Assembly (NCBI GenBank): GCA_023078555.1
Contig: CM041202.1
Span: forward strand, 62,001-126,000
Length of the DNA: 64,000 nucleotides
Direction: 5' to 3'
From: Ulva prolifera
Taxonomy: Eukaryota; Chlorophyta; Ulvophyceae; Ulvales; Ulvaceae
The notes below the pieces were generated by a model. That model was not told where the DNA came from. It worked only from the letters and a program-made list of their open reading frames with translations, and did no database searches. The translations under genes were made by a program, and so were the position numbers. This document shows, piece after piece, positions 2,800-62,771 of the stretch (its first letter is position 1; the number at the start of each line of letters is the position of its first letter).

Positions 2800-2814
2800 G
2801 CGTCCTCTACCCCC

Positions 2815-3225
2815 GCACGCGGTGCAGAGGGTGTGACAGCAATGCTGTCCATCGCAGCCATAGCACAGCGGCACTTGGTGTTTCTGTGCTGTTGTGGCCT
2901 CTGCCCCCGCACGCGGTGCAGAGGGTGTGACAGCAATGCTGTCCATCGCAGCCACAGCACAGCGGCACTTGGTGTTTCTGTGCTGTTGTGGCCTCTGCCC
3001 CCGCACGCGGTGCAGAGGGTGTGACAGCAATGCTGTCCATCGCAGCCACAGCACAGCGGCACTTGGTGTTTCTGTGCTGTTGTGGCCTCTGCCCTCGCAC
3101 GCGGTGCAGAGCCTCTGACGGGGTGGAAGTGATGCTGCCCATCACAGCCGCAGCAGATTGAAATTGGCATCGGGTGTTTCTGTGTTGTGCCCTCTGCCCC
3201 CTCGCGCATTGCAGAGGGGGTGATG
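2815..3225. repeat. 94-bp minisatellite, about four copies plus a diverged one
   Basis: The marker ggtgcagagg recurs at 2821, 2915, 3009 and 3103, an exact 94-base period. A diverged copy follows near 3211. Each unit contains nested inverted repeats: cctctgc with gcagagg, a gacagcaatgctgtc palindrome, and a cacagcacag arm facing ctgtgctgttgtg. Open frames on both strands through this block only translate the repeat and are not counted as genes. Confidence 0.9.
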
Positions 3226-6369: not shown

Positions 6370-7215
6370 ATGTCCAATCTCGATCGTTCTAATATCAGCT
6401 CTCCTCGCGAGGAAAGGCAAGACAAGGCTGATCAGCAGCCACTAGTCGACAGAGACGCTGACCAGCAGCTCCCTGACGGAGAACAGCCCGCGGGCATGTT
6501 ACTTTGTGGCGGACGAGTCATCCGACCACGGCACACCAAACCGGGCAGAGTAGTCAGCAGGTGCCCTTTTCCTCTCATGTACATGTAGTGAACGATGCTG
6601 GTCACGCTGAGTCTCTCATCACACTCGAAACGTTGACCGAAGCGCTGCGAGCATCTCGGGGACGTAGCGAGCCTGATTTGACGAAAGGGAAACTGCCTGA
6701 GTGGAATCATAAGACCGAAAGCTTCGTTGCGTACAAGAAGAAAGTCTTTTTGTGGTTAGGCCAATTCGAACTGGATCATTTGTTGCAGCACGCACCGTCT
6801 GCGGACGAACAGCGTGTCCATGCTAGGGCGAGGGAGGACACATGTCCTTCTGTCTTTGCCTGACACGGATAGGACTACTGTCTATCGCATGTCACACCTG
6901 TGTGAAGCATGGGCCTATTTAACTGCAAAGTATAGGCCTAGCACCGAAGCCGAAATCCACAGACTGTGGAGTCGGTTTAATTCCTTATCACAGAATAATA
7001 GAGACGTTGGGTCTTACTTTGGTGATGTGATGAGTGTTTACACTCAACTGGAGGCACTAGGTACCGATGTGGGCCAACGATGGCTCCGTTTGAAACTGTT
7101 AGAAGTGGGGGAGGAGTTCAACGCTGTGCGCTGCGAAGTTCTCCACTCTTCCCCACACGTAATCATATCACGTTTGACTGAGCATGCCGATTTGCTCAAG
7201 CAACAACGGCTGTAG
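6370..7215 (+). pseudogene. gag: Broken Copia-type gag (UBN2-like) fragment
   Basis: A frame starting with ATG at 6370 shifts near 6500-6590 into a second frame (to about 6840). It shifts again into a third frame that ends at a TAG at 7213-7215. The last part carries the hallmark gag/UBN2 pattern: an AWxYLTxKY segment, then RLWSRFNSLSQ with a glycine- and aspartate-containing turn, then a helix ending VYTQLEALG. Gag of Copia elements forms the capsid-like particle. Here it lacks the zinc-knuckle region and any pol domains, and base composition jumps to GC-rich at about 7217, where an unrelated LINE begins. I infer that the LINE entered or replaced the 3' part of this element. Two frameshifts mean it is dead. 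Confidence 0.7.
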
Positions 7216-7216
7216 G

Positions 7217-9943
7217 CTAGGTCTGGGACGCCCGCGGGCAAACCAGGCCATGGCTGGCGCAAGCAGCCCCGTGGTGATGGTCATGTGGTCGCCGCTCTCG
7301 CGGCAGGCCATGCTCCTCGCGAGGAGACCAGGAAAGCGGCGGCAGCGCGGTGCCGCGACTACGCCCTTGGGCTGCCCGTGGAGATGTGGGAGGACACGTC
7401 GCCCGGCCACTGGCCCGGGAGACGCAAAGCTGGCCGCAAAGCAGATGAGCTGCAGGCGCAACACATCGACAGATGCTTGCGCATCAAGCGCTCCATTCAC
7501 AAAGCTGGCCGCGGATTGCAGGATAGCAAGCCCGCAGATGCGCGGTCCCCGAAGGTCCAAGCCGGTCTGCGCGCATTGTTCCCGCCAGCAGATCCGCCGG
7601 CTCCTCTGGAGCCGAACCCGGATGTCCCCGCTATGTGCCTGACACGGGAGGCGCTGGTGGCGGCGGTGGCCGCCGTGAGCGCACACCATCGAGGGTACCG
7701 GTTCGCGGCAGTCGGACGGTGGCACGCGGCCGATCGCGGTGGGGGAGACCTGGTACCGGTTCGCGGCAGTGTGCGCCCTGCACGAGTACGGCCGCGGCAT
7801 CGGAGAGATCCTGGTGCCACTGCAGGTCGGCGTTGGTACGCGGGGCGGGACCAAGACAGTCGTGCACGGCCTGTCTTCTGCTCTCGCCGAGGGCGCTTCG
7901 GTGTTCTCGGTCGACATGAAGAACGCCTTCAACTGCATCGACCGCGCGGCCATGTTCGCTGCCGTGAAGGAGCGTGCCCCGGCGCTCCTGCCCTTCACGC
8001 AATGGGCGTACGGCGCCGGGACCCCGCTGCACATCGCGGGCGCTCCGGAGGACGTCGGGCCGGTCCTCTGCCAACGTGGCGTCCGCCAAGGTGACCCCCT
8101 GGGCCCCCTCCTGTTTGCGTTGACCCTGCAGCCTGTCCGGGAGCGCGTCGACGCGTCAGGCGCCGGCGTTCCTGTGGTGGCGTACCTGGACGACATCAGC
8201 ATCGCGGGCGACCTCGCGGCTGGAGCTGCCGTGTTCCGGCGGCTGTGCGTGGAAGCAGACGGCGTGCGCAGCATCGGGCTGGAGGTGAACCAGCCCAAAT
8301 GCGGCGTCCACAGCGCCGACGCCGAGGCGGTGGCCGCTGTGGCCGCAGAGCTCGGCATTCGGGATCTGCACGAGGGCTTCAAGGCAGTCGGCACGCCGCT
8401 GGGCACCCCGGAGTACGTCGCCGAGGCGCTGGATGCGCGGGCATGCGAGGTTGAGGGCCTCGTCGAGACCCTCGTGCGCATCCCGCTCTCCTGCAGGCGC
8501 AGTTCCTCTTGCTGCATGTGTCCCTGAGTGTGGGCATGACGCACCTGATGCGGACGGTGCCGTATGCCGTGCTCGAGCCGCACATGCGCAGAGCGGAGGC
8601 CGCTGTGTGGCGCGGTGCCGCCGCAATCCTGTGCCTGCCGCCTGAGGTTGCGGAGGCAGCTGCCGCGTCTGACAAATCGGCCACTGACGCTGAGACGTGG
8701 CGGCATTCTTACCGGCTGAAGTCCCCTGTCAGGCATGGCGGGTTCGGACTGACGATGCTGGTGGACAGCGTCGCTGACGCGGCTTTCCTGTCGGGGGCCG
8801 GCATGGCCGATCGCAGCCTCGCCGGCTGCCCGGACCTGCTCCGCCCCCTCCGCGGCCACAGCCGTGGCAGTCTGTTGCAGCGCTGGCAAGGCTTGTTCGA
8901 CGAGCTGCATGAGCTGCTAGGGTGGGAGGCGGATGCCCATGACCTACCGGACGAGTTCGTCTTGGGCAAGCTGCTGGCGGCCCAGCGTGAGGTGGGGCGC
9001 GCGGTCGTGGACCATGCGGCCTCACTCCTGCTACAGGGCATCGACCTCGACACGCCGGCCGGCAGGCGGGAAGCGGCGTGGCTCAGGAGCGCGTCGGGGG
9101 GGGCCTGCAGGCGCCTTCCTCTCCGCTCTGCCGGGCGGCGTTCTCACCCTGGGCGACGACATGTTTGTCCTGGCGGTGTGGCACCGCCTGCGATTCCGCG
9201 TCCCGACGGACGTCCCCCCCCCCTCCGTGCAAATGCAGTGCAGGTGTTGCCGCCGAACCAGACCACGCCATGGTCTGCAAGAAGGTGGTAAAGGAGACCC
9301 AGATGCGCCATGATAACCTGGCTCGTGCCTTGCGCCTGGTCGCCACTTACGCCGGACTGCAGTCTGCCCTGGAGCCGCTCTACCGTGCCCTCGTGAGGGG
9401 CGCGGGTGTTGAGCTGAATCGCCGCGGGGACATCGTCGTGGTCATGCCGCGCCTGGAGATGGCGGCCGTGGACGTCGTTGTCACACATGCGCCGGCGGCC
9501 TCATACGAGGCCGCTGCGGCGCGGGAGACGGGTGCAACGGCGGAGCGGGCGGAGGACAGGAAGCGGGACCGCTTCCGGCGGGACGTGCCTGACCATGCCG
9601 CGTTCCGGTTTGTTTCGTTTGCAGTGGAATCGTGTGGCTTCATGGGCAAGGCTGCCGTGAGGTTCGTCAGTCAGTTGGGGGATGTGGCCGCTGCCAGTGG
9701 GCGCAAATCCAAAGGCGCGTTTGTCCAGTGGGCGCTGCGGGTGCTGTCGGTGTCACTGCAGCGTGGCAATGCGGATATGTATCGGAAGTCTGGGCTTGTC
9801 ATCTCTCGGGAGCAGGGGTTGATCCTGCCGGACTGAGTTGTGAGTGCGGTTGTCGTGTGCGTGTGTGTGTGAGTGTATGTTGATGTTGATGCGGATGAGA
9901 TTCGGTTTCAGTGTATGTTTTCTCCCGTTCAATCTTTTGTAAA
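7217..9943 (+). mobile_element. Non-LTR retrotransposon (LINE) with restriction-like endonuclease, copy 1
   Basis: This GC-rich block encodes a reverse transcriptase followed by a C-terminal nuclease. It ends in a GT-rich 3' untranslated region and the tail ctcttttgtaa-like sequence near 9934-9942. The same 3' end recurs in three truncated copies in this window (11.6, 45.7 and 63.5 kb), which fixes the 3' boundary. The 5' boundary is uncertain: composition changes at about 7217, right after the Copia gag remnant, and I found no target-site duplication. Compared with the other copies it lacks 27 bases just before the stop codon, so it is a distinct subfamily or carries a deletion. Confidence 0.85.
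7285..9836 (+). pseudogene. Reverse transcriptase / restriction-like endonuclease polyprotein, frameshifted
   Basis: Coding signal passes through four frame segments: about 7285-7690, 7690-8505, 8509-9100 and 9100-9836. The reverse transcriptase shows motif A (VDMKNAFNCIDR, near 7910), motif B (GVRQGDPLGPLLFAL, near 8080), the catalytic YLDD (near 8183) and motif D (NQPKCG). The last segment has a Cys/His cluster, then RxGD, an AxDVVVTH strand, a KRDRF element and a VES strand. It ends VLSVSLQRGNADMYRKSG, the pattern of the restriction-like nuclease in R2/NeSL-type and algal LINEs. These enzymes nick target DNA and prime cDNA synthesis there. At least three frameshifts make this copy inactive. 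A 19-base exact repeat (near 7694 and 7750) lies at the first frameshift and may mark its cause. Confidence 0.85.
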
Positions 9944-9952
9944 TATACTGCA

Positions 9953-10145
9953 GATACAGGCCGTGCAATGGTGACGGAATGTGAGCAACATGGCGAGACA
10001 ATAGTAAAAAGTGCTCCAGGCCTCATCGCGTTGTGCACGCCAACACTCAAGCTGGTCCCCCTGATGGGATGATGGCTGCGGCTGGGAGGCGAAGGTGTTA
10101 GCAACGTAGACGGAAAGGATATCGCAGCCATGTGGCCACCGGTTC
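9953..10145. other. Junction between LINE copy 1 and the tyrosine-recombinase element
   Basis: About 190 bases follow the LINE tail before recognisable RNase H coding begins. The segment could be the reverse transcriptase end of the DIRS-like element, but I see no palm motifs in it, so the upstream part of that element is missing or unrecognisable. Confidence 0.4.
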
Positions 10146-10891
10146 ATGAGCGCACACCTCGAGCATCTGAATGGTAGGCCGATGCATGCGGCCGCACCCG
10201 TGCTAGAACTGAATGCAGACACTGCTTTGGCAAGGAAAATACTTGCGAGTGTAGCCAACCACCTAGTCTTGGCGTGCGATGGAAGCGAGACGGCGTTCGG
10301 GGGGTTCCTGACCGGGCAGAGAGAGTGGGCCATGGTAGCAGACATGAGCGCAGAGGAGAGACATGCTGGACTGTCCAGCACGCTACGGGAGGTGCGGGGC
10401 TTCAGAGTAGCCACGCAATGGTTGGCTGCACGCGGCAAGCTGAAATGGGGCCAGCAGGTCTAGATATGGGCTGATTCACAAGCAGCGTACGCGTGCTGGG
10501 TGCGCATGCAAGATTTTTGAGGAGGTTTGTGGGCTGCACGTGCGGGCAGGGGAGGCTAGCGTCCATTTGTTGTTGTGGGGTGTCGCAAGAGCATGTAGCG
10601 CTACGAATCGCGGCTGCCCTGTCGAAATGGGAGGATAAAACAGATCGGCGCTTCTCGAAGCGCATGGCACAGGAGGAGTTGTTTCTGCAAATGGGAACGC
10701 CAGAAGTCGATTGCCTGGCCTGTGCGCAGGCGCACATGTGCGAAGTGTACTTTGAAATGTACGATGGGCAGTGTGTAGCAGTGGACGGCATGGCGCAAAA
10801 GTTGGATGTGTGGCCCCGCCGGGCTGGTCAGCAAAAAACCAGGATGCTCGACACCCGATGTTGTGGCTGTTCCCGCCGGTGTCCATTCTAG
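10146..10891 (+). pseudogene. RNase H region of DIRS-like retroelement, broken
   Basis: The frame from 10146 contains the RNase H pattern of DIRS elements: a CDGSETAFGGFL strand (first catalytic Asp), then LSSTLREVRGF (catalytic Glu in the SSxxRE motif) and, after an in-frame TAG at 10461, IWADSQAAYACW (the DxQAA motif). The signal then moves to another frame (10493-10891). There an ALSKWED segment and a segment around EVDCLA match the region that follows RNase H in these elements. RNase H removes the RNA strand after reverse transcription. One nonsense codon and at least one frameshift show it is inactive. Confidence 0.7.
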
Positions 10892-11586
10892 TGAATGTGT
10901 TGCGGAAGGTGGAAGCGAGCGCTGGTAATAGTGGTACTACCGTGGCGAGTGTCATCGGACATCAGCACAGTGCTGAAGAGACTGCCGGTCGTGCATCGAA
11001 AGCAGCTGACGGGACCGCACAGTGATGGTTCAGCCCACTAGCCAGGTGCCGTTGCATACGGCTGCAAGTGGATGGAAGGTGCCCATGCAGGAATTCCATG
11101 TCCAATGGCCTGGGGCATGATGGGTGTAAGGATGTAGGTTTAATACAATTGGCACACAAACATCTGTTGGCAACTACCTCACACTTCGCGAACAATGCAT
11201 ATGCATTGTCCCTGGCCTGCGGTGGCAACCGCATATTCCCCTACAAGAGAGCCATAATTATAAGCACATCATTACCACCACAACGGCGCTGCTAAGCTAG
11301 ATGACGTCCTGGATCCAAATACATGTGGGCCACAGTCAGTGCTCAACCCAACTAGCTGCATGATAGCGGGCACAAAGCCACCAGCGTCTCGCTCATGTTG
11401 GATGCGGCCGCGGCGCAGACCGTGCACAGTGTACACCTGAGGCCCCGCGCCACGCAGAGCAGCGGTAGCAATGCGATCAAAACGAATAGCAAATCCGGAC
11501 GCTGTACACGTCACCCTGAGAGAGGTTCGCTGCGGATTCACAGAAGCATACCTACAGAAAATTGCCTGCCCCTCGGGCTCGCTGTA

Positions 11587-11597
11587 GCGACGCTGGT
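11587..11597. repeat. Target-site duplication of LINE copy 2 (partner 11850-11860)
   Basis: The 11 bases gcgacgctggt occur on both sides of the inserted LINE tail. The duplicated bases belong to the recombinase coding sequence. Confidence 0.9.
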
Positions 11598-11849
11598 GTT
11601 GTTACAAAAGAGTGAACGGGAAAAAACAAACACTGAAACCGAATCTCATCCGAATCAACATCAACATACACTCACACACACACGAACACTACAACCGCAC
11701 TCACAACTCAGTCCGGCAGGATCGCGTCCTCCAGGCCCGCATCATACCGCAACCCCTGCTCCCGAGAGATGACAAGCCCAGACTTCCGATACATATCCGC
11801 ATTGCCACGCTGCAATGACACCGACAACACCCGCAGCACCCACTGGACT
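11598..11849 (-). mobile_element. LINE copy 2, 5'-truncated 252-bp tail
   Basis: Read on the minus strand this is the last part of the endonuclease frame (VLSVSLQRGNADMYRKSG onward), its stop, the GT-rich untranslated region and the ctcttttgtaa tail, matching LINE copy 1. It keeps the 27 bases before the stop that copy 1 lacks. It is flanked by exact 11-bp direct repeats, gcgacgctggt, at 11587-11597 and 11850-11860. Truncation at the 5' end plus a target-site duplication is the product of target-primed reverse transcription. Confidence 0.92.
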
Positions 11850-13128
11850 GCGACGCTGGTTGAACAAATGCTGCAAGCGCCTGACCGCACATAAATTTGC
11901 TTTAGCGATGAGCTCGGTAGACACCCCTACGGATATAGGCCGCAGCCGCTTCGCATTCTTCAGCTCGACAAGAGTGAGCACTATGCCGCTCGGCAGCTCT
12001 GCAGCGCCTGACTCCTCACGCCACAAGCTGAGAACAGGGGAACTGTCAACTGGACGGGCACCCTGAGCATAAATGTGGTGCCAACCTAGCCGCAACAGAT
12101 CCGCACCGCGCCGGCCGCTGTGCCACAGCAGAGCTACTTGAGCAGTGTCGCGCGCGCAACGCAACCGTTCTAGAACAGAGTGTTGCGCAACCGCTGCGGT
12201 CTGGCAGGCATCTAATTGGTGCAACAACTATCCCATGACACCTATGGTCACCGGCACGGCGCTGCGCACGCGCACGCCGTTCGCGCGCTGGCGCCGCTCG
12301 GCCATCTCAATGTGGTTGCGCACCAGGCTGCTAGCAGCGAGATTTCCTCTGCGGGCTAACTCATCCCATGCCTCGCTGCGGCCGATCTTGCAGAAGCACA
12401 TGCTGAGGTTTGACAGCAGCTGCCTGAACGTGGCCACGTCCATGGAGGCAGTGAGCGCAGCACCGTCCTGCCCCGTGCGCTGAGACACCACGTTGCGGAG
12501 GTAAACCAACAGCGGCTCGGGCGTCCATGTGGCCCACTGGCTGGCGGCATGGGTGCGCCATTGTAGCAGAATGTCGCTGAGTTTTTTCTGCGCCCGATCA
12601 ATGTTCGTCACAGTGCGGGCACTGCGCAGTAGCAGCCGTTCGTCGGCAATGTGGCCGTGTACGGCGCCGGAGAGCGCTGCTTCCTGCTCGGCCTGGGTCA
12701 GCCCGCACGGAGCCACTGCCTTGCGGAGATCAGGCTTCGACCGCCCGAAATGCCGCAGTGACAGGTGCTTCACACGCACACTGTGTGCTTCAAAAGTTGC
12801 CAAACATGAGCCCCTTGGAGCCTACCAGCGAGGCTCGTGCATTGTATTGCACATTCATATTTGCAAGAGTTTATTTGATCAACTTCAAAGCTCGAGCCAC
12901 AAAGGCTGAACAAGGCTGACAATAGTGCCACATGTGGCGCTACATATACACACACAAGGACATGCAGCCAAACACAAGATCGGTCTAGCAGCATCAACCA
13001 TTGGGCCATGTCCGACGCAGAGCCTGTGCGCGATACAAGGCTCATCATGCATGTGTTTTTGCAGAGGCTCAACCGCCTTCACCACTCATGTCCTCTCTCG
13101 CCCTGTGCCAGGGCCACTTTCAAGCCCC

Positions 13129-14711
13129 CTATGCTCCATACATTCCTTCAGGACTATCGGGACCTAGGGACACGACGGCACCATCTGGCTGTGTAGGCTC
13201 CAACACTGGCTCGGGACCGTTGCAGCAGGTCGCGCCAGCAAGGCAGGGTGCAGCCGCTGCGTCTTTCAGCATGATGCATGCGCCGCTGCAGCAGATCGGC
13301 AGGTCTGCGCTGCAGCACACGTCGACCGGGTTTGGCTCCGGCATCGGCTCGGGCATCGGCTTGGGCTGAACGGGCTCCTGGCACAAAAAGATGCTCAACC
13401 TCCTGGAGCCCCTCATTGCAGGGCATCAACCCCACCTGAATGCACGGTGGCGCTCCAACCAGACCCCACGTCATGTAGGTTTGATCTTCTGTGCCGCACA
13501 CGTTGCCCTCGGAGCACTCGAGCCTGATGACGTCATCGACCTGGACGAAGCAGCATTGCTCGCCGGTCGCACCGCACCGCTCGCAGATGCCATCCGGGGA
13601 GCCCTCGCCGAATGCGCAGAGGTTGTCCTCGTCGCAGCCTTTTTTATCGAAGGGGGTGTTGAAGCCGCGGCAGCAGGGCTCGCCCATGGCGCCGCAGGGG
13701 GGAGGGGGTGGGGCCTTCGAGTCGACGCAGATCGAGAGGTCGAACTCGTTGGACGCCGCTTCGAGGCCGTCGTCGCACGTGCCATCCTCTGCAGTTGCAG
13801 GAATGGTGGTGAGTTAGCATGTACTGTCATCGCGACGAGTCAGTAGATTCAATGACGCTGATGGCACACGACTCAAAGATGAACAGAAAATGTGTTGCCT
13901 GTTACAAGGGGCCGCAGCTGAGGCAAGAACGTTTTGGTCATTTCCCACGGCAGCCCTCTGAAGTAACAGCGTACAAACGATGTTGACAGGCAGAAGCGTG
14001 AGATAGCAGTGTCGTTGGCACTGTCTCCTACAGTGCCTGAGCAGCAGCTGCAGTCACTTGTGCACACCACATAGGTCCACATCACCATCAACGGGAAACG
14101 TTCCCACCAACATAACATGATGACATGCTGCTATGCCACCGATGACACTGCGGCCACAAAGGCTGCAGTGACACAGTTGCAGTGGCACAGCTGCTCTACC
14201 TGCCTGCTCGCCCTGGTCCTTGCCACACAGCTGCAGAGGCACAGCTGCAGAGGCATTGTTGCAGGTGGGGGCAGCGGAGGCGGCATGGGGAGGCGAGTGC
14301 GGGGGCTGTGCTGTGCTGCGTGCTGTGAATGGTGGAAGCGGTCCTCTGGCGCGTTATAATAGTGGAGGGAGGGCGCTGGGATGCTGCGTGCTGCTGGCGT
14401 GTGTGCTGTGCGCCACGCGCCATCGTGGTCTCGGTGCTGTGTGCCCATGCGCAGCGCTGGGATGCCGCACCACTGGGGATTTCGCCGTGGGCGCCGCACT
14501 CGCGGCAGATGCCGAAGCTGCCAAGGTTCTGCATGTTGCCGCCGCACGCGAGGCCGTCGTCGCACGTCAGGCCGCCGGCACTGCCGAAGCAGCAACTCTC
14601 ATTAAGCGAGCCGCACTGGGAGGGGTCTCCGAGGAACGCTCTCGCCGGCATGGCGGCGACGGTGAGTGTGGCCACCGCGAGCGCAGCCGCGAGGCTGCAT
14701 GGCCTCACCAT
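13129..14711 (-). pseudogene. Inverted, damaged copy of the cysteine-rich/PEP secreted protein gene
   Basis: Exon 1 (14711-14471) starts with ATG, encodes a signal peptide (positively charged start, then an Ala/Val/Leu-rich core ending ARA-F) and one module with CGSLNESCCFG and GICRECG. A 682-bp intron (14470-13789) has GT-AG borders in phase 1. Exon 2 (from 13788) continues with CGAMGEPCCRG and CERCGATGEQCC, then lacks roughly 100 residues present in the intact paralogue at 21.1-23.9 kb. A T5 run at 13385-13389 shifts the frame; the following frame still encodes PEP repeats and CCSADLPICCSG. The first and second exon modules of the intact gene appear merged here. The 5' flank also matches the intact gene (CCTCCCCACCCCCGCTCCCTG block), so a genomic segment was duplicated in inverse orientation. 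A single-base sequencing error is the alternative for the frameshift, but the internal deletion remains. Confidence 0.8.
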
Positions 14712-15920
14712 TGCAGGAGGGCTCTTCCAGTGATTAGTGTGCATACAGGGAGCGGGGGTGGGGAGGCTGCAGGTTCAGTGTTGAGTCATCGATTCACATG
14801 GAACAATTTTGAATAACGCCGTCTGGTATCTGGACGACGGTCCCGGAGAGTTGGCAAGGCGACCCGATGATGCCACGGCGGCGCAGTGAGGGGCACACAT
14901 CTCTCGGAGGTGCACGGGGCAGGGATTCTGTGATGTGTCGAGGAAGAAGGGTAATAAGAACGGTATGGGTCGGGTGGGGTGCGGGAGGCCGCTGCGCTGA
15001 CACCAGGTATTGCCTGGAATGCCCAGAGCGTTGAAGCCTCCTTGGCGAAAGTGTTCAGCTGGGCACAGAACTGAAGACTTGGATGAGTGAGCAAGCCGAG
15101 GCTTGCTTTGGCGGAGACCAGGTGCGTGCTCCGGGCCGATGGCGTGCTCCCCGGCCTCCCCGGCCGATCGCGCACGTTTCGTAGTGGGTGCTGTGTCACG
15201 TGCATCTCGTTAAGACTGCCGAAGGGATACACGTAGTCGGGCTGCACGAAGATGCTCAGAGCACGTCATTTCTATACTATTGAATAGTATTCAACGACAC
15301 TCTCTGCTTTCCGAGGGTCCTGTACCATGCAGACAGCCCCACCAGGTACTGTAATCATGCACGCAGAAGCACCACACATAAGCATGGACGATCTATATAT
15401 CTGTGCAGATGTGTGTAAGGGACAAGGCAGGTAGTAGCACCACGGCAGTTGACAAGAACAGACACCCAACTGCCACTCGTGGACGCAGGCACAGCTGCTC
15501 GGTTGCTACCAACCGTTCGTCCCAACCGTACAGATCTGCATGCAGTGCTGGTGGATCTATTTGAGGTAGCCGAGAGTGTGCCCATTCTGGAGCCTGGTCT
15601 GTGGGCAACAGACCGAATGTTGTTGATTTGAACAGTCACACCAGCACAGCAGCTGTGCCAGATTCCATTATGCATGCACATACAGGCCCATCTGTCTGCT
15701 TCAAATGGATACAGTTGATGGTTTGCCTTGCAGTAGCATCTAGCTGAAGGGCGCTGTACCTGCACATGTCAAGGCACCGCACCCCACAGCTGGACAGCGA
15801 CGAGATGCTTCTAATTTGCCGACCTGAACTTCGATACTGTCTGGAAGGTTGAGCACTGCACTGCGTTTGGGCGTTGTGTCGGCCTGCGCAGCCAGCATGC
15901 TGCCCGGACACTTACCGCTG
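14712..15920. other. Intergenic stretch
   Basis: No supported gene. The first 60 bases are the conserved 5' flank of the pseudogene to the left. A 153-codon minus frame (15247-14786) is open but has no recognisable feature. Confidence 0.4.
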
Positions 15921-45663: not shown

Positions 45664-45809
45664 CACGTTTTTACAAAAGAGTGAACGGGAGAAAACAAAC
45701 ACTGAAACCGAATCTCATCCGAATCAACTGCAACATACACTCACACACACACGAACACTACAACCGCACTCACAACTCAGTCCGGCAGGATCGCGTCCTC
45801 CAGGCCCGC
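45664..45809 (-). mobile_element. LINE copy 3, 5'-truncated 146-bp tail with 15-bp target duplication
   Basis: Minus-strand copy of the LINE 3' end: the last codons, stop, GT-rich untranslated region and ctcttttgtaa tail. It is flanked by exact 15-bp direct repeats, agataatctgtagct, at 45649-45663 and 45810-45824. It matches copy 2 rather than copy 1 in keeping the bases before the stop codon. Confidence 0.95.
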
Positions 45810-45824
45810 AGATAATCTGTAGCT

Positions 45825-53409: not shown

Positions 53410-54849
53410 TCACGCATCATCACTGTCACTGTAAAGAGCTTCACATGTATAGGTACCATCACTTTTTACTATACAAAGTTCCTGCCTCAGGACAAACGCG
53501 TGGACTGGCATCGGGCCTGTGATGCCCTGACAGCTGTCCAGAACATACAGCATGTACAGCACATCTATGTGGGCTTGGCTGGCTGACCTCGAGCTCTCAT
53601 TCAAGCCTTCAGTACTAGTGAGGCAAATCCATGCAGTGATTGGCACACACCAGCCCCCAGCACAGACCAGCGCCCACTGCCAGTCTGACAACGGCTTGCA
53701 GTCCTCACCGAACGCCGGCAGCGATCCAAAACCACCGGTGAGGGCGAACGCAGCCATTCCTGGCGCCCACGAGGGACAGACGAACCCCACATACAACGCC
53801 ACGGCCAAAGCACAGATAAAAGGAATCTTCACAAGAAAAGACACCAGCCTAATAAGGTTTGCGACACAATCCAGCACACAGCGGCCCGGCGGCCATGTGG
53901 CCCACCATTCGAATTCCAACGACAGCGTGCCTGCAACATATGTATGCCACATCACGCTGAGACATGTCTGTGCGCTGCGTTTACGAGCAGCCGCTCGCAG
54001 CCCGGGAGGGAGGGGTTTGCCGCGCTTGCAATGCGTGGCGCCGACGTACGGCTGCAGCGCTGGGGGGACCGCATCTGGCCCCTCCCTCCGCCGCGCAGCC
54101 CGTGTCTGCTGCACGACCAGCTCATAGTGTAACGGCTTCTGCATCCTATCCCTTGCAGTGGGGTGGCGCCTCCGATGGTCCGCTCTCGTGGGCGAGCTGG
54201 AACCGAATGCATAGACGGGGGGCAGAGGCCTTTGTGAGGTGCCCTCAGGTACCAGTTCGTCCCGTAAAATTGTGGCAAGAGAAGGGTAGAGTGAGTGCAC
54301 ACATGTCGGGTGCGAATGTCGTCGCGAATTAGACTGTGGCAGATCAGTAGCCACGTCAAAGTGGCATAGCAGCCGCGCCCGCACGTCCGGCCCCGCCCTG
54401 TCAGTATACAGCAACAACGCGAGTGCTCTCGTGTGCTCTGCCACATCTGACCGCACCATCTTCCAGTAGGCCAGCATAAACGGGACGCTGAACAGAAACA
54501 CGAGCAGAGTAGCCCTGGCGCCGGCTGGCAGGCCCCCACGCGGGCACTGCAGCGGCTTCACCCAGCCGTACATGCATATGCATAGCAGTGCGCCCAGTGC
54601 AGCTGCCAAGAAGATGGTGCAGAGAGCCTTGCACGGGGACGCCATTCCTTGCGGCACCCAGCGGCACCGCCTCGCGGCGGCGGTGACGCAGAGGGGCAGG
54701 GGGGCGCCGGAGGGCCAGTGGGTGGCGTCGACGTACGGCTCCAGCGCCGCCGCGACCGCCCCGATGCCGTGGCGCGAGCGCGCCGCGCCGGTCTGCGTGC
54801 GCAGCTCCTGCAGGCCGCTGGGCTCAGCAGCGGGTTGCGCGCCCGCCAT
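53410..54849 (-). CDS. Two-module membrane protein, founding member of a local family
   Basis: A frame of 479 residues from the ATG at 54849. Module 1 starts with LQELRTQTG and the core ALEPYVDATHWPSGAPLPLC. Two likely membrane segments follow, one around residues 75-95 (CTIFLAAALGALLCICMYGW) and one around 110-130. Module 2 starts near MQKPLHYELVVQQ and repeats the core as ALQPYVGATHCKRGKPLPP. It then has membrane segments near LIRLVSFLVKIPFICALAVA and WALVCAGGWCVPITAWICL and ends with VLYMLYVLDSC, GITG, PVHAF and SDGTYTC. The signature ALxPYVxATHxxxGxPLP is in both modules, so the protein arose by internal duplication or fusion of two genes. The stretch between modules is low in features and could be a frame-keeping intron or an intergenic spacer. 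I know no such family. Confidence 0.6.
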   Translation of the reverse strand: MAGAQPAAEPSGLQELRTQTGAARSRHGIGAVAAALEPYVDATHWPSGAPLPLCVTAAARRCRWVPQGMASPCKALCTIFLAAALGALLCICMYGWVKPLQCPRGGLPAGARATLLVFLFSVPFMLAYWKMVRSDVAEHTRALALLLYTDRAGPDVRARLLCHFDVATDLPQSNSRRHSHPTCVHSLYPSLATILRDELVPEGTSQRPLPPVYAFGSSSPTRADHRRRHPTARDRMQKPLHYELVVQQTRAARRREGPDAVPPALQPYVGATHCKRGKPLPPGLRAAARKRSAQTCLSVMWHTYVAGTLSLEFEWWATWPPGRCVLDCVANLIRLVSFLVKIPFICALAVALYVGFVCPSWAPGMAAFALTGGFGSLPAFGEDCKPLSDWQWALVCAGGWCVPITAWICLTSTEGLNESSRSASQAHIDVLYMLYVLDSCQGITGPMPVHAFVLRQELCIVKSDGTYTCEALYSDSDDA

Positions 54850-62210: not shown

Positions 62211-62771
62211 TCAGGCTGTGATGGTTGCGAGAGGAAACAGTGTATCAAGATCTGGGTGCTGTCTCCTGAAATTCCCTGGCACACACCCGACAGCAAAGTC
62301 AAAGTTCCGAAGCAGCTGCCCCCGCACGTTGGGCCCCGCCTTGTCCAGGTACAGCACCACTGTGAGCGCTCGTGTGTGTGCCATCACATCTGAGAGCACC
62401 ATCGCCCAGTACATCAGTGCAAACGGGGTGCAGAACATGAGCACAAGCAGCGCATTCCTCGCGCCTGTCAACAGGCCCCCGCGGGGGCACTGCAGCGCAT
62501 CCACCCAGCCGTACACGCTGCCGCATGCCGTTGCCCCGAACGTCGCTGCCAGGAAGATGTAGATGAGCGCAATGCGCAGTGACGCCATGGCTTTGGGGAG
62601 CCGGCGGCACCGCCTCGCGGCCGCGGTGATGCAGAGGGGCAGGGGGGCGCCGGAGGGCCAGTGGGTGGCGTCGACGTACGGCTCCAGCGCCGGCGCGACC
62701 GCCCCGATGCCGTGGCGTGAGCGCGCCGCGGCCGTCTGCCTGCGCAGCTCCTGCAGGCCGCTGCTGTGCAT
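62211..62771 (-). CDS. Single-module membrane protein, paralogue of module 1
   Basis: From the ATG at 62771 the frame encodes 186 residues. SGLQELRRQTAAARSRHGIG and the core ALEPYVDATHWPSGAPLPLC are almost identical to module 1 of the 53.4-kb protein. Likely membrane segments near ALIYIFLAATFGATACGSVYGW and NALLVLMFCTPFALMYW follow at the same places, as does the downstream LYLDKAGPNVRGQLL block. By eye the DNA of this part (about 62600-62765) is nearly the same as 54658-54835, so duplication or gene conversion is recent. After GQLLRNFDF the similarity ends and the frame stops 25 codons later. Either an intron begins there, or module 2 was lost. Function is unknown. Confidence 0.6.
   Translation of the reverse strand: MHSSGLQELRRQTAAARSRHGIGAVAPALEPYVDATHWPSGAPLPLCITAAARRCRRLPKAMASLRIALIYIFLAATFGATACGSVYGWVDALQCPRGGLLTGARNALLVLMFCTPFALMYWAMVLSDVMAHTRALTVVLYLDKAGPNVRGQLLRNFDFAVGCVPGNFRRQHPDLDTLFPLATITA

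What the first reader, a model, noticed from the sequence alone, without database searches (positions are those of the whole stretch)
10146..12803. DIRS/Kangaroo-like retroelement with recombinase opposite the RNase H, whose frame is restored by removing a LINE
Seen: RNase H motifs on plus and tyrosine recombinase boxes I and II on minus. The recombinase is cut by a 252-bp LINE tail with an 11-bp duplication; removing 263 bases joins NQRR and YSEPEG in one frame. Established: Kangaroo of Volvox is, to my memory, the known case of an inverted recombinase. The order of events is clear: recombinase element first, LINE later.
Basis: partly seen in the sequence, partly recalled or inferred. Interest (0 to 1): 0.7.

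Follow-up and report, generated by a model that had tools for sequence, protein, structure and literature searches.

The report
Broken jumping gene with backward recombinase
The window holds an old, broken copy of a retrotransposon whose DNA-cutting recombinase is written backwards relative to its copying enzyme; better copies in the same algal genome confirm the layout, and recent copies seem to have kept the recombinase while their copying enzyme is broken or missing.

Summary
Window 9981-12781 is a truncated, decayed copy of a tyrosine-recombinase (YR) retrotransposon: pol remnant (RNase H and a downstream domain) on plus, YR on minus, converging. A 252-bp LINE 3' tail (11598-11849) with an exact 11-bp duplication cuts the YR; copies without it confirm that the element came first. 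The YR also has a TAG and a frame change, so the LINE is not its only lesion.

In this green-lineage genome 52 YR loci were merged from two hit lists; 21 have an RNase H hit within 3 kb, 19 of them convergent on opposite strands. Complete copies (6.0-6.7 kb) have split direct repeats and no fixed target duplication: PAT-like. The internal repeats lie outside the YR, unlike published Kangaroo (between MT and YR) and like the inverted-YR PAT element of Daphnia.

Unexpected: none of 11 intact-YR elements has a detected intact RT. Five recent family-1 copies share two RT stops, yet their YR is constrained (dN/dS 0.17) and their RNase H region is not (0.90); a second family is pol-less. RT in trans is likeliest; YR-only DNA mobility is not excluded.

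The parts
9981..12781 (.). truncated copy of the family-1 YR retrotransposon (pol on +, YR on -)
   Evidence: blastn to L014 7015-4534 at 80-82%
10143..11117 (+). pol remnant: RNase H and downstream (putative MT) domain; TAG in frame and frame changes
   Evidence: matches to P0002 in three main pieces; TAG at codon 119 of the reference frame
11295..12776 (-). tyrosine recombinase pseudogene (boxes I and II), interrupted
   Evidence: tblastn with L011 YR, 80% and 70% aa identity; the intact L011 YR hits a PHROG integrase family at E 3.7e-7
12228..12230 (-). in-frame TAG stop in the YR
11598..11849 (-). 252-bp LINE 3' tail inserted in the YR
11587..11597 (.). target-site duplication, copy 1 (11 bp)
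11850..11860 (.). target-site duplication, copy 2 (11 bp)
7679..9950 (+). longer LINE copy (RVT_1 in the ORF 7679-8524) whose 3' end lies next to the truncated end of the element
   Evidence: Pfam RVT_1 E 4e-10; shared 3' tail

Best explanation
The window holds a dead fragment of a PAT-like YR retrotransposon, with inverted YR, of a green-lineage alga. Shown: RT-RNase H-(putative MT) are read one way and the YR the other, tail to tail; complete copies carry split direct repeats whose outer ends (B2, A1), if joined, give the internal B1A2 sequence, and show no fixed target duplication. Inferred from these features and the known YR-retroelement model: the RNA is copied to DNA, terminal and internal repeats allow a full-length circle, and the YR inserts the circle by recombination at the B/A junction. 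This copy lost its ends, gained a stop and frame changes, and received a LINE 3' tail in its YR; the LINE came after the element, but its order relative to the other lesions is not known. The recent copies in this genome have a defective or absent RT and a preserved YR; most likely they borrowed RT from another element.
For: Convergent layout in 19 of 21 YR loci with an RNase H hit within 3 kb. Both split repeats (A and B pairs) in L011, L009 and L013; of the 5 loci self-compared, L012 and L016 showed one of the two pairs and L014 none. B1 and A2 abut in L009. No duplication of fixed length at the ends in 3 of 3 copies with both ends in hand (L009, L011, L013). 0 inverted repeat pairs of 25 nt or more in L011 2000-9800. 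YR: R222, H361, R364, Y396 in 5 of 6 aligned rows that reach all four sites, L014 having R364H; PHROG integrase families at E 3.7e-7, 2.7e-5 and 2.7e-5 for families 1, 2 and 3. RT: RVT_1 E 6.9e-7, exactly at the cut-off, and Ty3 RT E 1.4e-5 for the family-2 RT. RT and RNase H in one frame in L052, with two stops inside. LINE order. Constraint on YR against pol among five recent copies.
Against: Pfam does not reach its cut-off for the YR (Phage_integrase E 0.24) or the RNase H (RT_RNaseH_2 E 0.19); PDB gives nothing for the YR profile; the AlphaFold job did not finish. The domain after RNase H is called MT only by position and recalled motif. The circle is inferred, not observed. RT in trans is inferred: the one RT frame open over the whole query (C5:7731000, 722 aa) is in a copy whose own YR has a TAG and whose RNase H lies 24 kb away.
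Confidence: 0.85

Rival explanations
1. A true Kangaroo element (Volvox type).
For: Inverted YR, split direct repeats, green-lineage host.
Against: Internal repeats lie between the YR start and the outer terminal repeat, not between MT and YR (against PMC4157794). PMC4157794 infers that inverted YR arose more than once, so layout alone does not prove kinship.
Confidence: 0.25
2. The recent copies move as DNA by the YR alone, like Cryptons: a retrotransposon lineage turned into a YR transposon.
For: RT stops TGA161 and TAG232 are shared by 6 of 7 family-1 copies with an RT segment in hand, the five recent ones included, and those five also lack about 150 bp between RT and RNase H. YR dN/dS 0.17 against 0.90 for RNase H-MT; private changes 12 syn/6 non against 19/55, Fisher p 0.0018. 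Family 2a: 5 intact YRs, no RT or RNase H of their own found, YR dN/dS 0.15.
Against: Family-2a leader and YR are 97.7% identical to those of a pol-bearing copy (L046) and the match ends with the YR stop codon: this points to template switching or conversion with pol-bearing elements, which would also keep the YR intact. In family 1 the noncoding leader is also unusually uniform (0.2% against 1.4-2.6% beyond the YR) and synonymous divergence in YR is about half that in pol. An open RT frame exists.
Confidence: 0.2
3. Chance overlay: an unrelated recombinase fragment next to an unrelated RNase H fragment.
For: Nothing beyond the degraded state of the window copy.
Against: Same order and strands in many copies and several families.
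Confidence: 0.01

Closest known systems
Inverted-YR PAT element of Daphnia pulex (PMC4157794, Figure 1G as described in its text)
   Same: Split direct repeats, inverted YR, internal repeats upstream of the 3' terminal repeat.
   Different: Different host group; no sequence comparison was possible; recent copies here lack a working RT.
Kangaroo (Volvox carteri)
   Same: Inverted YR, split direct repeats, green alga.
   Different: Published position of the internal repeats differs; sequences not available for comparison.
Toc3 and Pat1-like elements
   Same: PAT-type split direct repeats, RT-RNase H and YR.
   Different: Toc3 differs from Kangaroo by the direction of its YR (PMC4157794), so its YR is not inverted as here.
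Crypton
   Same: The pol-less family 2a encodes an intact YR and no other recognised gene.
   Different: Long split direct repeats and a decayed pol tail (E 8e-6 to 5e-7 in L040, L041, L045; 5e-5 and 1.4e-4 in L039, L042; single-locus searches) mark it as a retroelement derivative; Cryptons have no long direct repeats (PMC3212892, passage).

Membership tests
PAT-like YR retrotransposons | split direct repeats A1...B1A2...B2 | tested here: met
   L009: A 129 bp and B 249 bp, each 100% identical in its two copies, B1 and A2 abutting; L011 100%; L013 97-99%. L012 and L016 showed one pair each, L014 none. Not found in the truncated window copy.
PAT-like YR retrotransposons | tyrosine recombinase with R-H-R-Y | tested here: met
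   in intact copies; Pfam below cut-off. The four-residue signature is recalled. The window copy is a pseudogene.
PAT-like YR retrotransposons | DIRS-type RT-RNase H | tested here: met
   family-2 RT is at the RVT_1 cut-off; RT and RNase H in one frame in L052, with two stops; family-1 RT segments match the family-2 RT at 32-42%. That it is of DIRS type rather than another Ty3-like type is by linkage to the YR; a tree was not possible.
PAT-like YR retrotransposons | methyltransferase (MT) domain | tested here: inconclusive
   conserved domain after RNase H but no Pfam, NCBIfam or credible PDB match.
Kangaroo | inverted YR | tested here: met
   19 of 21
Kangaroo | internal repeats between MT and YR | tested here: not met
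   definition from PMC4157794
Kangaroo | sequence kinship to Volvox Kangaroo | not testable with these tools
   no Kangaroo sequence found on hand; paper PMC1462361 not held
DIRS1-like | inverted terminal repeats and internal complementary regions | tested here: not met
   0 inverted repeat pairs of 25 nt or more in L011 2000-9800
Crypton | YR without RT, no long direct repeats | tested here: not met
   RT/RNase H segments and long split direct repeats in family 1; family 2a lacks pol but has the repeats

The most novel reading that the evidence does not exclude
In this alga several PAT-like lineages have gone from retrotransposon to recombinase-only mobility: the RT is dead or deleted, the split repeats are kept, and the YR alone is under selection and drives spread as circular DNA. 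It would be a transition from YR retrotransposon to Crypton-like DNA transposon caught in one genome; PMC4157794 (section 6) states the reverse direction, Cryptons contributing to the origin of YR retrotransposons, as what is thought.
Probability: 0.17. Interest if true: 0.75.

Novelty: new variant of a known kind. Interest (0 to 1): 0.5.

Why it matters
In the papers that I read, inverted-YR retrotransposons are described from Volvox and Daphnia. This genome adds several families with that layout, in the repeat arrangement described for Daphnia rather than for the green-algal Kangaroo. The contrast between a preserved YR and a decayed pol in recent copies makes the question of whether a YR element can shed its RT and go on moving directly testable.

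Tried and rejected
Relatives outside the genome: viral contigs with the family-1 YR, the YR alignment and the family-2 RT, genome contigs with the family-2 YR, phages with a piece of the window YR and with the RT: no match. Organism: no RuBisCO large subunit match in the assembly; a chlorophyll a/b protein (L056) matches green-lineage LHC proteins, so a green-lineage alga; not named further. The top PDB hit there, 9vfj, scores high because two domains add up; a Euglena paper using those subunit names was seen in a search listing only, and I do not take it as evidence for Euglena.

Considered and dropped: a two-component system in which pol-bearing copies supply RT and pol-less copies supply YR. 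The TAGs in the two pol-bearing family-2 YRs are at different codons, so they look like private decay. Considered and dropped: a genetic code with TAG as sense; the window RNase H TAG stands where L011 has Q, and other stops are TGA and TAA. The 7-bp overlap of repeats in L011 is not seen in L009, where B1 and A2 abut. The family-2 YR tree puts pol-bearing copies among pol-less ones but the nodes in question have supports of 37-64, so no order of pol loss is claimed.

Results against, or limits: RNase H-MT dN/dS between recent and older copies is lower (L019 0.18, L016 0.33, window 0.38, L017 0.51, L014 0.67, L015 0.80), so pol was constrained earlier; RT among the recent copies is 0.51, not clearly neutral; one of five recent YRs (L013) has a stop; pairs are not independent. 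L017 shows none of the stops in the 916-nt RT segment, while one search counts 3 TAG over its longer match; its YR and RNase H are broken. In one search only 79 of 140 candidates were scored, so an intact RT could be missed, and several open frames at 21-28% identity (up to 1717 aa) were not examined; I take them for other retroelements. In L013 the flanks share 3 nt (aaa) and the left flank of L011 ends in the same 5 bases as B2; I take both for chance.

Full report
What is in the window. Between 9981 and 12781 lies one truncated copy of a repeated element of the same genome (window = G000:C7:62001-126000; genome 88.9 Mb in 44 contigs). It aligns collinearly with L014 (7015 to 4534) at 80-82%. 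On plus it carries the remains of a pol gene (10143-11117, three main pieces). On minus it carries a tyrosine recombinase (YR) pseudogene, 12776-11295, at 80% and 70% amino-acid identity to an intact YR. The two converge. The copy ends near the YR start on one side and beside a LINE on the other; no match to the terminal repeats or to the RT queries was found in the window.

The LINE. GCGACGCTGGT stands at 11587-11597 and 11850-11860, with 252 bp between. This insert is the 3' tail of a LINE; a longer copy with an RVT_1 domain lies at 7679-9950 (E 4e-10) and a third tail at 45667-45810 (97%). In 6 of 6 loci compared and in L010 the match passes from window 11850 to 11595 without the insert, and the intact protein of L011 reads straight through. 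But the YR also has a TAG at 12228-12230 and a frame change near its end; whether these came before or after the LINE is not known.

The element in better copies. I fetched 14 stretches of up to 10 kb and worked mainly with 11 family-1 loci (L009-L019). L011 has a 404-aa YR (P0001) on plus, and RNase H plus a downstream domain (P0002, 342 aa) on minus, with RT further upstream on minus. Four full-length family-1 YRs with no stop were found; two more (C5:9757614, C8:5995603) are open over residues 28-404 only. R222, H361, R364 and Y396 line up in 5 of 6 rows from families 1, 2 and 3 that reach all four sites; L014 has R364H. The YRs match PHROG integrase families at E 3.7e-7, 2.7e-5 and 2.7e-5 (families 1, 2, 3), but Pfam Phage_integrase only at 0.24. 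RT is recognised in family 2 (L055: RVT_1 E 6.9e-7, exactly at the cut-off; Ty3 RT E 1.4e-5). The RNase H acidic pattern (D, E, D, D) was read by eye in L052 and L011; the motif is recalled and Pfam gives no support above cut-off. The name MT for the last domain rests on position and is not tested.

Repeats and insertion. In L009 a terminal 129 bp (A1) recurs inside (A2) and the other terminal 249 bp (B2) recurs just before A2 (B1), at 100% identity, B1 and A2 abutting; L011 (100%) and L013 (97-99%) are alike. Of the other loci self-compared, L012 and L016 show one of the two pairs and L014 none. Complete copies span about 6.0 kb (L013), 6.4 kb (L009) and 6.7 kb (L011). Joining the outer ends B2 and A1 would give the internal B1A2 sequence. 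In the 3 of 3 copies with both flanks in hand no duplication of fixed length is visible. No inverted repeats of 25 nt or more were found in L011. This is the PAT-type arrangement. Seen in the direction of RT, the internal repeats lie beyond the YR start, towards the 3' terminal repeat. PMC4157794 (passages, sections 6 and 19 read) says that Kangaroo has them between MT and YR, and that a Daphnia pulex PAT element has an inverted YR with internal repeats upstream of the 3' terminal repeat. Our layout is the second.

Is the opposite orientation general? Merging the YR hits gives 52 loci, many of them fragments. Of these 21 have an RNase H hit within 3 kb: 19 on the opposite strand and downstream of the YR; 2 on the same strand (C7:3785248, in my reading a fragment beside another element; C8:1253931, a 30-aa remnant); 31 have none. 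Hit lists are lower bounds by the tool's own note, and copies within a family are not independent. Families include the window family, a second at about 36% aa identity, and a third at 54-55% to the second.

RT dead, YR alive in family 1. Of the 7 family-1 copies with an RT segment in hand, 6 share a TGA at codon 161 and a TAG at codon 232 of the reference frame; L017 shows neither, though its longer RT match counts 3 TAG. The five recent copies (L009-L013) also lack about 150 bp between RT and RNase H that L014, L017 and the window keep. Yet 4 of 5 have an open YR. Among these five, dN/dS is 0.17 for YR, 0.90 for RNase H-MT and 0.51 for RT (10 pairs each, not independent). Private changes are 12 synonymous and 6 nonsynonymous plus one stop in YR, 19 and 55 in RNase H-MT, 16.5 and 26.5 plus one stop in RT (Fisher p 0.0018 for YR against RNase H-MT and 0.05 against RT). 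Divergence is 0.2% in the leader, 0.6% in YR, and steps up after the YR stop to 2.5%, then 1.4-2.6% further on, with 0.3% in the last 96 bases compared.

Family 2 repeats the theme. L039, L040, L041, L042 and L045 have an intact 398-aa YR and no RT or RNase H hit of their own; the RT hit within 6 kb of L045 (C5:395600-397235) lies outside its B1-B2 span, beside the RNase H of the neighbouring copy L052, and is itself broken. B1 and B2 pairs 5.5-6.2 kb apart are listed for 5 of 5. Only L040 was read to near its far end, with some 0.5 kb unread; for the other four the lack of pol rests on the genome searches and the first 1.5 kb. Their YR dN/dS is 0.15 (5 copies, two of them identical). A decayed tail of pol follows the YR in 5 of 5 (E 8e-6 in L040 and L041, 5e-7 in L045, 5e-5 in L039, 1.4e-4 in L042, each searched against one locus), so they come from pol-bearing elements. 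L043 (family 3) has an intact YR, a 50% match to the pol C-terminal domain, and another open frame directly upstream where RT would be expected. In all, 11 YR loci are full length with no stop (4 family 1, 5 family 2a, 2 family 3); none has an intact RT of its own detected. In one search only 79 of 140 candidates were scored.

Interpretation. The ordinary explanation is RT supplied in trans by another element, with the YR kept because it acts on its own DNA, or because YR segments are exchanged with pol-bearing copies. The sharp edge at the YR stop in both families and the near identity of pol-less and pol-bearing YRs in family 2 (97.7% in DNA over leader and YR) favour exchange. The bolder reading, DNA-only spread by the YR, is not excluded: only one RT frame of this kind open over the whole query was found, in an interrupted element.

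Novelty. Full-text searches for Kangaroo, DIRS, split direct repeats, inverted YR, non-autonomous DIRS, Crypton origin, TOC1 and YR-only listed no paper whose title or abstract start describes RT-dead, YR-constrained PAT elements, and I saw none in the passages that I read of PMC4157794, PMC3212892, PMC6681497, PMC3266345 and PMC8226300; the other listed papers were not opened, and the library lacks most subscription papers, the Kangaroo paper included. PMC8226300 (passage) reports PAT-like DIRS elements across Chlamydomonas relatives, and PMC3266345 (passage) states that PAT elements can have recombinases in inverted orientation, so the kind itself is known.

Noticed in passing
window 6763-7215 and 7679-8524: A copia-type gag domain match (Retrotran_gag_2, E 6.6e-6, 26.1 bits against a cut-off of 27) stands upstream of the LINE RT; it may be part of the LINE or a separate fragment.
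   Followed up: no
window 13196-14769 and 23485-21081: An inverted duplicate region in five matched pieces, 72-84% identical.
   Followed up: no
window 2804-3223: Tandem repeat with a unit near 94 bp.
   Followed up: no
window 54349-54820 and 62292-62763: Direct repeat of 472 bp at 79% identity.
   Followed up: no
L011 7155-7771; L040 joined to L054, 5660-6231: Both YR families carry a long internal array of direct repeats (11- to 23-bp units in L011; about 97-bp spacing in L040+L054) in the non-YR half.
   Followed up: partly
genome G000, B repeat of family 1: 41 matches to the B repeat (40 of 43 candidates scored), more than the coding copies account for, suggesting non-coding derivatives or solo repeats.
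   Followed up: no
L040 and L046 near 2667 of L040: The 97.7% match between a pol-bearing and a pol-less copy ends with the YR stop codon.
   Followed up: partly
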